A DNA stretch of 14,259 nucleotides from contig WFWP01000011.1 of assembly GCA_015491055.1 (NCBI GenBank), positions 1 through 14,259 of the forward strand. The letters run 5' to 3'. This document shows positions 10 through 3,861 of this stretch, in pieces. Within the stretch, counting starts at the first letter, position 1; each line of letters opens with the position of its first letter. Origin of the DNA: Patescibacteria group bacterium. GTDB taxonomy: Bacteria; Patescibacteriota; Minisyncoccia; Phycocordibacterales; UBA2100. The translations under genes and the position numbers were made by a program. The notes beneath the pieces are model-generated. The model did not search any database. It was not told where the DNA came from and was given only the letters and a program-made list of their open reading frames with translations.

Positions 10-2133
10 ATGAGAAAGGTGATATTTGGGTTATTGTTCAGTGCCGTATTCTCTTTGTATGGTACGGCGCAGGCAAACGTACCGATAAGTGTTGATAAAG
101 CATCGGGATACGCCCCGTTGCAAGTCACATTTACGGCGCAAGCTTTCGCAAATTCATGGACGGATCCGGCAACCGGCAATACCGTAAGCATAATGGACAG
201 GGGAGACAGATACATTTCTTTCGGAGATGATTCCGATGATGTTAAATTGGTTTGTCAGAATCCCACATCGTCCACTTGTACCGTAACCGTAAATCACACA
301 TACGATGAACCCGGAACATATGATGCGGTTTTGTTTACCGCCGGTTTTTATGGAATTCAAAATGATTCTCAATACGGAACCAGGGCGGATGTGGATAAAA
401 TAACCATACGAGTCAGGGGCTCGTCACCAATTGAGGGGGAGTATGATTCATGTGTTGATGCGTATGAAAACGGAGAGACCGAAAGCGGATATTACAGTAT
501 AGACGGAATAGGGCGCGCTTATTGCGATATGGATACGAATGGCGGAGGTTGGTTGCGAATAACTCCCGAACTTGCAAGAGATGAATTGAATGGAAAATTG
601 AGGTTTGAAGACGGTAAGAGCAATACTGATTACGGGTTTGACGGAAATGACAGGCCGTACACGAGAGATGATACCGGCGCTCATACGGCTCATTACACTT
701 TTGATTTGCCGGTGGAAATGTCTGAATTTATGTTGTTTGATTATTATGCAAAATCAAATTCCGCGCCCGATGATTCTTCGGATTTATACGGATCAAGATT
801 TACGCAAACATCTTGGGATAAGGCGCATGATAAGAGCGTGGGAGATGTATCTTTCGGTTTTGCCGATGATAACGGGCCGATCACAAGTTTCGCAAAAGAA
901 TTAAGCGATGATACTCTTGTTACACATAATCAGAGAATCAAATGGCCTCGTGACGAAAAGATTTATAAAACAAACAATCCTTCGGATAGATTCAGGATAG
1001 GGTGGGGAGATGAAGGTGGACCCAAGGAAGGTTGGTTTCCTTGGTGGAGCGGAAGTATTTTGATAAGGGAACGCGCCCCGAAAAGGCCTCTTGAAATTGA
1101 CATAAGGTATGCTCGTATTGAAGATGATAATGATGTGGTATTCAAAACCCGCGTTTCGGGAAATCCCGACGATGAAGATACCGAAATGCGCGTACAATAT
1201 GAAGACAGAGAAGGCGGGAGATGCAGGGGTGATTGGGAGCCGGCATATATAAAAAAAGGCGCAACAGCGACAAATGAAGACGGAGGAGATGAGCCGAGTG
1301 TAGATAATAACAAATCTTATCAAATAGGGTCAAAAAGCGGAGAACGGGTTATCGCGGACGGAACAAACAATACGGTAAGATTCACATGGGACGCTGAGCG
1401 AGATTTGGGTAAAAACCTTGAGGGAAAGTATTGCGTCCGTGTTACGGTTCGCGCGGATTCCGGTGAGTCAGATATGGACACTTATATCGTTGACTTCGGG
1501 ACCTCGCCTGATCCGGATACGGATTCCGATTCTGCGCCAAATCCCACACCTCGTCCGAATCCGTCTCCGAGAGGCGGGGTTACGATAGTTTCTCCCGTGA
1601 ACGGCGCAACGGTTGAAACCAATAATCCGGCGATTATAGGAACGGGTATTCCCGGGCAAACCGTAACGGTTGCCGCGGTTGGAAAGCAGTGCACGGCGCG
1701 CGTTATGTCGACAGGGGGTTGGACTTGCACTTTAACATTATTGCCTGCGGGAACTTATAAAATAGTCGCTACGCAACGCAACAATTACGGGCAAATTACC
1801 GGTACCGACACCGCGCAGTTTACCATACCGGGCAAGAAGTGCCCCGTGTTTACCAAGTATCATAAATTGGGGGATATTGGAGGAGAGGTTCCGAAAATAC
1901 AAGAGTTTTTGAAGAGTCGCGGATATTACACGGGCCCGATAACGGGATATTACGATTATGCCACAGACAGAGCGATAAGATCATTCCAATTGGAATTTAA
2001 GGAACTTATATTGGATCCGTGGAGATTGCCGGCACCAACAGGAAATTGGTATAAGACGAGCCGAAAGCATGCAAACTTCCTTTCAGGGTGCTACGAAACG
2101 GTATATCTTGAAGGTATAGGCATTACTTTCTGA
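10..2133 (+). CDS. Secreted multidomain protein: PKD, fibrinogen-like, Ig-like and peptidoglycan-binding domains
   Basis: 707 aa exported protein, probably displayed on the cell wall. Residues 1-22 form a signal peptide (MRK, hydrophobic core, cleavage after AQA). A PKD-like domain covers about 24-136 (SGYAPLQVTFTA, then HTYDEPGTYDAVL). Residues 147-355 resemble a bacterial fibrinogen-related domain: SCVDAYENG, SGYY-IDG, YCDMDTNGGGW, and near the end RIGWGDEGG and WWSGSILIRE. Residues 360-497 form a beta-rich Fn3-like segment, followed by a Pro/Asp-rich linker (499-520). Residues 523-606 are a bacterial Ig-like domain (VTIVSPVNGATV, PAGTYKIVATQ). Residues 613-694 are a PG_binding_1-type module (VPKIQEFLKSRGYYTG, ATDRAIRSFQ). 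The start is the only sensible one, but just 9 bp of upstream DNA are visible and no ribosome site is seen. It converges on the Mur ligase gene, and its TGA stop abuts a palindromic repeat. Domain calls rest on motifs; the natural ligand is unknown. Confidence 0.85.
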   Translation: MRKVIFGLLFSAVFSLYGTAQANVPISVDKASGYAPLQVTFTAQAFANSWTDPATGNTVSIMDRGDRYISFGDDSDDVKLVCQNPTSSTCTVTVNHTYDEPGTYDAVLFTAGFYGIQNDSQYGTRADVDKITIRVRGSSPIEGEYDSCVDAYENGETESGYYSIDGIGRAYCDMDTNGGGWLRITPELARDELNGKLRFEDGKSNTDYGFDGNDRPYTRDDTGAHTAHYTFDLPVEMSEFMLFDYYAKSNSAPDDSSDLYGSRFTQTSWDKAHDKSVGDVSFGFADDNGPITSFAKELSDDTLVTHNQRIKWPRDEKIYKTNNPSDRFRIGWGDEGGPKEGWFPWWSGSILIRERAPKRPLEIDIRYARIEDDNDVVFKTRVSGNPDDEDTEMRVQYEDREGGRCRGDWEPAYIKKGATATNEDGGDEPSVDNNKSYQIGSKSGERVIADGTNNTVRFTWDAERDLGKNLEGKYCVRVTVRADSGESDMDTYIVDFGTSPDPDTDSDSAPNPTPRPNPSPRGGVTIVSPVNGATVETNNPAIIGTGIPGQTVTVAAVGKQCTARVMSTGGWTCTLTLLPAGTYKIVATQRNNYGQITGTDTAQFTIPGKKCPVFTKYHKLGDIGGEVPKIQEFLKSRGYYTGPITGYYDYATDRAIRSFQLEFKELILDPWRLPAPTGNWYKTSRKHANFLSGCYETVYLEGIGITF

Positions 2134-2135
2134 TT

Positions 2136-2260
2136 TTCATCGCTAAGAAGTTTCAAACATGAGAGCAAGAACAATCTGATGTGTTTTTGAAAATCGGGTC
2201 TCGGGTGCGCGCAACATGCCTTTGGCATATTGTAGGGATAAGTTTTTTGAGAAGATGTAT
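2136..2260. repeat. Palindromic repeat element, copy A (intergenic, decayed)
   Basis: This segment matches 3130-3253 inside the Mur ligase gene in the same orientation, at an offset of 994 bp. The first 41 positions align without gaps with about 8 mismatches, the next 20 (2177-2196) are identical, and the central part differs by a few bases and one single-base deletion. The inner hairpin (2212-2232, arms around GCCTTTGGC) is kept with one mismatch. The right outer arm has drifted, so the long terminal inverted repeat seen in copy B is degraded here. It begins two bases after the TGA of the upstream gene. The single-base difference would break the reading frame that copy B keeps open. Confidence 0.8.
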
Positions 2261-2370
2261 GGGACCACTCCCATTAAGTGCATTATGCAAATAGTTCTTA
2301 ATGCAAGTTTTGAATATTGAAAATTAAAACATTGTATATTGTTTGAAAATTGAAAATTCGTAAATGAAAA
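2261..2370. other. AT-rich spacer between convergent genes
   Basis: The spacer holds a small hairpin (GCATTA at 2280-2285 pairing with TAATGC at 2299-2304, followed by AAGTTTT) that could be a weak terminator for the gene ending at 2133. It also has three short direct copies of TGAAAATT between about 2318 and 2370. No gene is seen. Confidence 0.35.
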
Positions 2371-3861
2371 TTAACTTAATTCAAGTAACGCATCTTTAAC
2401 AGCTTCATAATCCGACCATGGAACTTCTTTTCCGTTCACCGTTCTTGATGTGTAATGCCCCATGCCGGTCACAATCACAACATCTCCGTTTTTTGCAAGA
2501 CTTATCGCTTTTCGTATAGCTTCTTTTCTGTCTGCGATATTATGATATTCGCAAGTGTGATCAGGGTTCTCTTGCAATGTGTTTTTTATATATTTAATCA
2601 AATTTGACCTTATTTTATCGGGATCTCCGTCATACGGCTCATCATCGGTTACGATTGCGATATCGGATCCGAGCGCTGCAGACTTTGCAAGTCCGGGGTG
2701 GACACTCGCATCATGTTGACCACCGCTTGCGCCAAATACAAGTATCACCTTGCCGCTTTTCGCTATTTCTCCGGCGGTTGACAGGGCGCTACTCATAGCT
2801 TTTTCGGTAAGCGCAAAGTCAACAATGCAGGTAAGTGTCTTGTGAGGCACAATCTGCATCCTGCCCGGCACGCCTTCAAAATTCTCAAGCGCCATCAATG
2901 AGTCATGTGTGGAAATGGTGTTTTGTTGGGTTTTTGTTTTGGTTTGATTGTAATAGTTTTTTGGGATTCTTAATGCATTTATTGCAATCGCCGCCGCAAG
3001 CGCATTGCCCGCATTGTAATTTCCCAACATGGGTAGTGTGTATTGGTGATTGTTATAGAGAAATACGGTGCCATATGTATCGGTGTATGCGCCGAGATGT
3101 TCGGGGCTGTAGGGAAGTGTATTAGGTAATTCATCGTTAAGGAATTTCAAAAATGGACACAAGAACAATCTGATGTGTTTTTGAAAATCGTAGGCGTGGG
3201 CGTGCGCAATGTGCCTTTGGCACATTGTAGGGATAAGCGATTTGAAAAGACACATCAGATTGTTCTTGGTAAACGTAAATGTGCATGGAGTGTTTAGCGT
3301 ATGAAGCCACTTTTTTCCAAAAGCATCATTTGTGGGAAGTATGGCAATACCATTATTTTTCAGATATTTCGTAAAAAGAAGTTTTTTTGCATTCGCATAA
3401 TTTTCTATTGTTTTATGAAAATTCAAGTGTTCGTGTGTGATATTTGTAAGTATTGCCACATCAAATTTTATACCGAACAACCTCCATTGAACGAGACTGT
3501 GAGAACTGACTTCAATAACGATGACTTTGATTTTGTTTTGTATGGCTTGTCGCAGGATTTTTCTTGTTTCATATGCGGAAGATGTTGTTCGCTTGCTCAT
3601 TTTCAATATCTTTCCATTCATTTTTATCGCATAACTTGATGCGGATATATTCGGTATTTTCAATTCATTCAATATGTGCGCGATCATCTCAACGGTTGTG
3701 GTTTTTCCATCAGTGCCCGTAACACCGATTATTTGCATATTTTGCAAATCGGACTTTTTTACCGGTATCACTATGCCGGAAATTACATTCTTTATACGGG
3801 TATACCAAAGCCGAACAGGAGAATTGTGCGGTATTATTTTGCGAAGATAGTGTATGATCAT
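2371..3861 (-). CDS. Mur ligase family protein (MurE-like, no N-terminal domain) carrying an in-frame palindromic insertion
   Basis: 496 aa ATP-dependent amide ligase of the cytoplasmic peptidoglycan precursor pathway, nearest to MurE. The central domain starts almost at once: P-loop GVTGTDGKTTT at 46-56, IEVSSHSL at 116-123, TNITHEHLNFH at 139-149, and a probable carbamylated lysine K159 in YANAKKLLF. GNYNAGNALAA is at 280-290. The C-terminal domain begins near 330, with VDFALTEKAM (347-356), VFGASGG (375-381), TDDEPYDGDP (405-414) and TGMGHY (465-470). The usual roughly 90-residue UDP-binding N-terminal domain is absent, so the nucleotide-linked substrate must be held differently or by another protein. 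Residues 198-244 are encoded by a palindromic repeat (see 3130-3270); without it the protein would be about 449 aa. Positions that contact diaminopimelate in Escherichia coli MurE (DNPR, GKGHE) read DEPY and GMGHY. It sits 18 bp after ruvA and is probably co-transcribed. The specific substrate is unknown. Confidence 0.82.
   Translation of the reverse strand: MIIHYLRKIIPHNSPVRLWYTRIKNVISGIVIPVKKSDLQNMQIIGVTGTDGKTTTVEMIAHILNELKIPNISASSYAIKMNGKILKMSKRTTSSAYETRKILRQAIQNKIKVIVIEVSSHSLVQWRLFGIKFDVAILTNITHEHLNFHKTIENYANAKKLLFTKYLKNNGIAILPTNDAFGKKWLHTLNTPCTFTFTKNNLMCLFKSLIPTMCQRHIAHAHAYDFQKHIRLFLCPFLKFLNDELPNTLPYSPEHLGAYTDTYGTVFLYNNHQYTLPMLGNYNAGNALAAAIAINALRIPKNYYNQTKTKTQQNTISTHDSLMALENFEGVPGRMQIVPHKTLTCIVDFALTEKAMSSALSTAGEIAKSGKVILVFGASGGQHDASVHPGLAKSAALGSDIAIVTDDEPYDGDPDKIRSNLIKYIKNTLQENPDHTCEYHNIADRKEAIRKAISLAKNGDVVIVTGMGHYTSRTVNGKEVPWSDYEAVKDALLELS
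3130..3270. repeat. Palindromic repeat element, copy B, inserted in frame in the Mur ligase gene
   Basis: The segment has a perfect 19-bp terminal inverted repeat, caagaacaatctgatgtgt at 3160-3178 against its complement at 3250-3268. Pairing continues inward for 12 more positions with three mismatches (to 3190 and 3238). The centre holds a perfect 9-bp hairpin (caatgtgcc 3207-3215, loop ttt, ggcacattg 3219-3227). Homology with copy A (2136-2260) extends about 30 bp left of the palindrome, to 3130. On the minus strand it is read through without a stop and encodes residues 198-244 of the Mur ligase, a Cys/His/Lys-rich stretch unlike the surrounding protein. Confidence 0.85.

What the first reader, a model, noticed from the sequence alone, without database searches (positions are those of the whole stretch)
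3130..3270. Palindromic repeat inserted in frame inside a Mur ligase gene
Seen: a 19-bp perfect terminal inverted repeat (28 of 31 positions paired), an inner 9-bp hairpin, and a diverged second copy 994 bp away outside any gene. Read through the gene it gives residues 198-244 with no stop, in a protein whose other Mur ligase motifs are intact. Established: Rickettsia palindromic elements (RPE) behave this way, as 100-150 bp palindromes that add 30-50 residues to housekeeping proteins. Inference: this is an independent, unrelated family in a Patescibacteria-like genome, able to invade genes without destroying them. It lies between the central-domain ATPase part and the GNYNAGNALAA strand, probably as a surface loop.
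Basis: partly seen in the sequence, partly recalled or inferred. Interest (0 to 1): 0.85.

Follow-up and report, generated by a model that had tools for sequence, protein, structure and literature searches.

The report
Palindromic repeat inserted inside murE
A 141-base hairpin-forming repeat sits in frame inside a cell-wall gene (murE) of a small-genome bacterium and belongs to a rare family of repeats that elsewhere lie between genes, mostly just behind stop codons.

Summary
Window 3130-3270 is a real palindrome filling codons 198-244 of murE without a stop. The three same-genus orthologues lack it. The only other copy found in the 469-kb, 80%-complete draft genome lies 994 bp away, between two convergent genes.

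A covariance model from the two copies found distant relatives: four copies each in two genomes of other families, none in three same-genus genomes. A core pattern hit 3 of 397 order genomes. The conserved parts are two unpaired loop strands and the A/T stretch beside them. The arms vary but stay paired.

None of the eight relatives' copies lies inside a long gene; five begin within about 10 nt of a stop codon. At one site the element sits inside what is a terminator-like hairpin in a sister species.

The comparison with Rickettsia palindromic elements holds as analogy, not membership: the murE frame is closed in 8 of 8 relatives' copies and copy number is low. I read it as a new family of non-autonomous palindromic elements with one tolerated insertion in a housekeeping gene. 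How it moves is unknown; translation of the insert is inferred.

The parts
2371..3861 (-). murE-like Mur ligase gene, 496 residues, single match in the genome at E <= 1e-20, carrying the insertion
3130..3270 (-). Element unit of 141 nt, codons 198-244 of murE (model orientation = murE coding strand)
3238..3268 (-). 5' arm (on the coding strand) of the inverted repeat, 31 nt
3160..3190 (-). 3' arm of the inverted repeat, 31 nt; identical in 31 of 31 positions to the intergenic copy
3230..3237 (-). Conserved loop strand 1, CTTATCCC
3191..3206 (-). Conserved loop strand 2, CGCACGCCCACGCCTA (family consensus GCRCGCCCNCRCCTA)
3207..3227 (-). Variable inner hairpin, 9 bp with a 3-nt loop
3130..3159 (-). 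30-nt flank shared with the intergenic copy; resembles the left half of the core as seen in G217 (possible partial second unit)
2136..2255 (-). Second, diverged copy (82%), lacking the 5' arm, in the spacer between convergent genes
2134..2370 (.). 237-bp spacer between convergent genes; in same-genus G001 the two genes overlap at their stop codons

Best explanation
3130-3270 is one copy of a short, non-autonomous, dispersed palindromic element. Its constant part is an asymmetric internal loop (CTTAWCCC opposite GCRCGCCCNCRCCTA) next to a TTTTnAAA stretch; its arms may vary as long as they pair. Elsewhere the copies lie between genes, most often in the hairpin right behind a stop codon, at least once inside a terminator-like hairpin. 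In this genome one copy lies at the convergent junction of murE and its neighbour. A second copy, in the same orientation, arose or landed 994 bp away inside murE and survived because its length is a multiple of three, the frame happened to be open, and the site is a variable-length segment of MurE. SHOWN: structure, homologous copies, covariation, absence in close relatives, location. INFERRED: movement in a hairpin form recognised at the loop by an enzyme not found here; arms kept complementary by replication template switching or by selection; translation of the 47 residues into a working MurE.
For: Insertion absent in 3 of 3 same-genus orthologues. Model built from the window copies finds homologous copies in G217 and G213, other families of the order; 4 copies in G217, 4 clear copies in G213, none in G001-G003 or in G213's same-genus sister G253. 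Core pattern in 3 of 397 order genomes, 0 control hits. Covariation: 12 of 19 pairs changed on both sides, 89% of cells paired, score 0.506 against 0.145 in shuffles and at most 0.13 with slid partners. Sites: five of eight relatives' copies start within about 10 nt of a stop codon. Filled against differently occupied sites: similar outer stem in G253, element inside it in G213; G253 another palindrome, three other genomes only a short spacer.
Against: Only two copies here, 1 kb apart, which also fits local duplication. No significant target duplication (p 0.25). No enzyme identified: no Y1 transposase found in this genome, and no right half of the core beside the 8 Y1 loci inspected. No longer, gene-bearing version found. 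Only 2 of 379 phylum genomes hit. In the covariation test 5 of 500 shuffles reach the same number of two-sided pairs, and the alignment and structure lean on the murE copy. The sister genome's site holds a different palindrome, not an empty site.
Confidence: 0.6

Rival explanations
1. Local duplication: the murE copy is a replication-associated copy of the neighbouring intergenic sequence, its arms made complementary by template switching; no transposition was involved in this step.
For: Both copies in this genome lie 994 bp apart in the same orientation and share a 30-nt flank; the 3' arm is identical in 31 of 31 positions against 68 of 91 elsewhere; no significant target duplication; template switching is published as making and mending hairpins (PMC8794818, abstract).
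Against: Does not explain the homologous multicopy elements in G213 and G217, so it can only be the last step. The murE copy has a 5' arm that the intergenic copy lacks.
Confidence: 0.3
2. A conserved structured RNA (3' end signal, terminator or RNase site) under selection, inherited rather than mobile; the murE copy is a stray.
For: Position behind stop codons in five of eight relatives' copies and T-rich flanks at some; covariation; conserved loop strands.
Against: Spotty presence: 3 of 397 order genomes, absent in the same-genus sister of G213 and in three same-genus relatives here, while three relatives lack any palindrome behind nusG. No Rfam match to the window element up to E 5. Among arm mismatches G.T is not commoner on the modelled strand (2 against 10 on the other strand, p 0.04, small numbers, poorly aligned flanks included); this would still allow an RNA read from the other strand.
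Confidence: 0.15
3. murE is being lost, or the insert is removed or bypassed (at the RNA or translation level), so the 47 residues are not part of a working MurE.
For: No expression data; the hairpin in the mRNA is strong (-50 kcal/mol).
Against: The frame is open throughout, the length is a multiple of three, MurE still scores above the NCBIfam cut-off, and it is the only such gene found in the draft genome at E <= 1e-20.
Confidence: 0.1
4. Assembly artefact of the draft genome.
For: 93 contigs, draft genome of 80% completeness.
Against: The two copies differ at 18% of aligned positions, the murE copy has an arm the other lacks, and the frame is kept.
Confidence: 0.03

Closest known systems
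Rickettsia palindromic elements (RPE)
   Same: Palindromic element of 100-150 bp found both between genes and in frame inside a housekeeping gene (RPE: PMC10969869 and PMC1950309, passages).
   Different: RPEs are reported with an ORF encoding a conserved peptide and in many copies (44 insertions, ten families in R. conorii). Here there are two copies, and the murE frame is closed in 8 of 8 relatives' copies.
REP sequences / REPINs and RAYT transposases
   Same: Palindromes between genes; Y1 transposase genes occur in the carriers G213 and G217.
   Different: REPs are 20-40 bp with a GTAG or CGTC tag at one end (PMC3733652, start of abstract in the listing) and usually in high copy number (PMC2817692, start of abstract). 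Here the unit exceeds 100 nt, has few copies, and no Y1 gene was found in the window's genome.
MITEs
   Same: Short, non-autonomous, with inverted repeats.
   Different: Arm sequence is not conserved between groups of copies, no significant target duplication, no parent element found.
IS elements that insert into REP palindromes
   Same: Insertion into an existing intergenic palindrome (PMC1525189, abstract), as seen at one site here.
   Different: Those are gene-bearing insertion sequences; here no gene is carried.
Coding palindromes of Nematomorpha mitochondria
   Same: Long inverted repeats inside translated genes (PMC6649704, abstract).
   Different: There both arms encode conserved protein regions; here the palindrome is an extra segment missing in relatives.

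Membership tests
Rickettsia palindromic elements | Palindrome of about 100-150 bp | tested here: met
   141-nt unit with 31-nt arms
Rickettsia palindromic elements | Inserted in frame in a protein gene | tested here: met
   One case, murE codons 198-244
[quoted passage not shown]
   murE frame closed in 8 of 8 relatives' copies; three of the eight are open in one other of the six frames
Rickettsia palindromic elements | Many dispersed copies in the genome | tested here: not met
   2 copies in an 80%-complete draft
Rickettsia palindromic elements | Sequence relationship to a known RPE family | not tested
   No RPE sequence was compared
REP / RAYT | 20-40 bp palindrome in high copy number | tested here: not met
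   Unit of 141 nt, 2 copies
REP / RAYT | Y1 transposase beside or in the genome of the repeats | tested here: inconclusive
   None found in the incomplete window genome; 7 matches in G213 and 3 in G217, but also 5 in G253, which has no element; no right half of the core in the 8 Y1 loci inspected of 18 matches
MITE | Target site duplication | tested here: not met
   Flank similarity p 0.25 by shuffling, 0.30 by random murE windows
MITE | Conserved terminal inverted repeats shared with a parent element | tested here: not met
   Arms vary between copies; right half of the core found only at sites that also have the left half, in 397 genomes
Known RNA family | Match to an Rfam covariance model | tested here: not met
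   No match in window 2100-3300 up to E 5; in relatives' loci L048, L049, L053 only tRNAs reach their gathering score, and one chance-level match (sR24, 18.5 bits, threshold 36) overlaps the L048 copy

The most novel reading that the evidence does not exclude
The conserved internal loop is the recognition signal of an undescribed mobile system that works on single-stranded hairpins: it reads the loop, ignores arm sequence, and plugs the element into terminator hairpins behind genes of these small-genome bacteria. In this genome it has entered an essential cell-wall gene in frame.
Probability: 0.25. Interest if true: 0.78.

Novelty: new variant of a known kind. Interest (0 to 1): 0.6.

Why it matters
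Protein-coding palindromes in bacteria are known mainly from Rickettsia (recalled; the review passages point the same way). An independent family in a distant, gene-poor lineage would show that housekeeping proteins elsewhere also absorb such DNA. The pattern found here (constant loop, free but paired arms, seats behind stop codons, spotty distribution) also gives a concrete signature by which the responsible enzyme can be sought.

Tried and rejected
Exact-word searches with the arm found only arm-length matches without the core (11 loci in genome contigs, 7 in viral contigs), because the arms are the variable part. The murE element against phages gave no match, against plasmids one 27-nt match. 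Relatives' copies gave only short partial matches: one plasmid record, five phage records. The whole-core pattern had 0 hits in viral contigs; the right half had 2, neither with the left half beside it. BLAST hits of 18-27 nt in G018 and G027 cover only the inner hairpin.

Rows dropped before counts: model hits in G124, G128 and G185 at E 0.04-0.09, of which only the G128 stretch was read, and it lacks the core; a G213 hit at E 0.02, read, also without the core; three G213 rows that are the opposite strand of counted copies. RAYT as mobiliser was set aside because no right half of the core lies in the 8 Y1 loci inspected, 2 of 7 matches in G213 and 2 of 3 in G217 among them. In one search several rows were wrong reading frames or duplicates (L009, L014, L022, L024) and some homologues were missing; replace it.

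Searches behind the statement that I found no report of this family: looked at as listings. They cover open-licence papers only. One of the original RPE papers is not held; the other was not sought.

Full report
OBSERVATION. The window's 2371-3861 (-) encodes a 496-residue MurE-like ligase. Within it, 3130-3270 is a 141-nt unit covering exactly codons 198-244 with no stop. It contains a 31-nt inverted repeat, 90% complementary with 19 consecutive perfect pairs, and a 9-bp inner hairpin. The longest perfect arm in 20 simulated windows was 10-13 nt. Folding is about eight standard deviations beyond shuffles with DNA and with RNA parameters. A diverged copy lies at 2136-2255 in the same orientation, just behind the stop of the + strand neighbour. 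That copy lacks the 5' arm, and its surroundings do not fold better than shuffles.

CLEAN INSERTION. The three same-genus genomes G001-G003 carry orthologues at 57-61% identity. All three skip this region: between fixed anchors they have 19, 19 and 20 residues, the window has 77. The extra 10 or so residues beyond the 47-residue unit may be loop variation or flanking DNA; a flanking direct repeat was not significant. In G001 the two convergent genes overlap at their stop codons, whereas the window has a 237-bp spacer holding the second copy. Both copies are therefore additions relative to G001.

COPIES IN THE GENOME. In the 469-kb, 80%-complete draft only these two copies were found by BLAST and by covariance model (two further rows at E about 4 are chance level). 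The 3' arm is identical in 31 of 31 positions between them, against 68 of 91 elsewhere. Both copies share a 30-nt flank, which resembles the left half of the core as found in G217 (0 of 2000 shuffles as good; p 0.01 to 0.57 with the other four core halves tried). A local copying event between the two is therefore likely.

A FAMILY. A covariance model from the two copies found the element in two genomes of other families of the order, G217 and G213, among 297. A core pattern found 3 carrier genomes of 397, with no control hits. The right half alone found the same three genomes and the same eight sites, none with the right half only. A refined model gave 4 copies in G217, 4 clear copies in G213 and 2 here; it gave none in G001, G002, G003 or in G213's same-genus sister G253. 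Among 379 genomes drawn from the phylum only G000 and G213 hit (stricter filters, which lose weak matches). The constant parts are CTTAWCCC, GCRCGCCCNCRCCTA and the neighbouring TTTTnAAA. The arms differ between groups of copies but stay paired: 12 of 19 pairs changed on both sides, covariation 0.506 against 0.145 in shuffles (0 of 500 as high) and at most 0.13 when the partner is slid; the count of two-sided pairs was reached by 5 of 500 shuffles. The structure was taken from the murE copy, so the figures lean towards it.

WHERE COPIES SIT. None of the eight relatives' copies lies inside a long reading frame on either side; some neighbouring frames, taken from their first possible start codon, begin inside the outer stem. 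Five of the eight begin within about 10 nt of a stop codon; the other three are about 33, 80 and 120 nt from the nearest one. The comparison with G253 is telling. At a nucleotidyltransferase / thioredoxin-reductase junction (genes named by eye, not by a search), G253 has an ordinary hairpin followed by a T run; G213 has a similar outer stem and T run with the element inside. Behind nusG (also named by eye), G213 carries the element and G253 a different palindrome at the same point, while three other genomes have only a short spacer. The window's intergenic copy fits this habit: it lies at a convergent junction.

MECHANISM. The best reading is a non-autonomous element recognised through its loop and multiplied in hairpin form. 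Its arms can drift because template switching, or selection for the hairpin, keeps them matched. Template switching as a maker and mender of hairpins is published (PMC8794818, abstract). The enzyme is unknown. Y1 transposase matches exist in G213 and G217, but also in G253, which has no element, and none was found here; the 8 Y1 loci inspected, of 18 matches, have no right half of this core, and several have plain palindromes of their own. RNA-level selection on the modelled strand is not favoured by the mismatch pattern (2 G.T pairs on that strand against 10 on the other, p 0.04; small numbers, and poorly aligned flanks are included).

WHY IT IS TOLERATED IN murE. The insert is a multiple of three, has no stop (a 15% chance for such DNA), and falls in a variable-length segment behind the middle-domain match. 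The same frame is closed in 8 of 8 relatives' copies, counted over the core and 32 nt on either side. The murE case is therefore best seen as a lucky survivor, not as evidence that the element is built to be translated. Whether the product works is not shown.

COMPARISON. [quoted passage not shown] PMC1950309 passages). It is not a REP (length, copy number) and not a typical MITE (variable arms, no significant duplication, no parent found). No Rfam family matches the window element. I found no report of it in the searches, which cover open-licence papers only.

Noticed in passing
window 2920-2964 (-): A second extra stretch in the same MurE, residues 300-314 (PKNYYNQTKTKTQQN), low-complexity and missing in the three same-genus orthologues.
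   Followed up: no
window 10-2133 (+): Neighbouring 707-residue protein with a fibrinogen-like YCDxxxxGGGW domain match and a stretch resembling SleB; probably a surface or secreted protein.
   Followed up: no
L063 1176-1258 and 1960-2024; L068 1252-1289 and 1994-2035; L069: Y1 transposase genes of G213, G217 and G253 flanked on both sides by long plain palindromes of their own, without the core described here.
   Followed up: partly
L085 (G253, behind nusG) and L111 (G253, nucleotidyltransferase junction): Two sites where G213 has the element hold different palindromes in its same-genus sister, as if hairpins behind genes turn over quickly.
   Followed up: partly
L007 about 255-310: Three short hairpins in a row in G018, the last with the same AATGTGCCAAAGGCACAT stem as the inner hairpin of the murE element.
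   Followed up: no
L043 3442, 4284, 5148 (also L037, L038): Viral contigs with arm-like words spaced about 850 bp apart; possibly repeats within a coding region.
   Followed up: no
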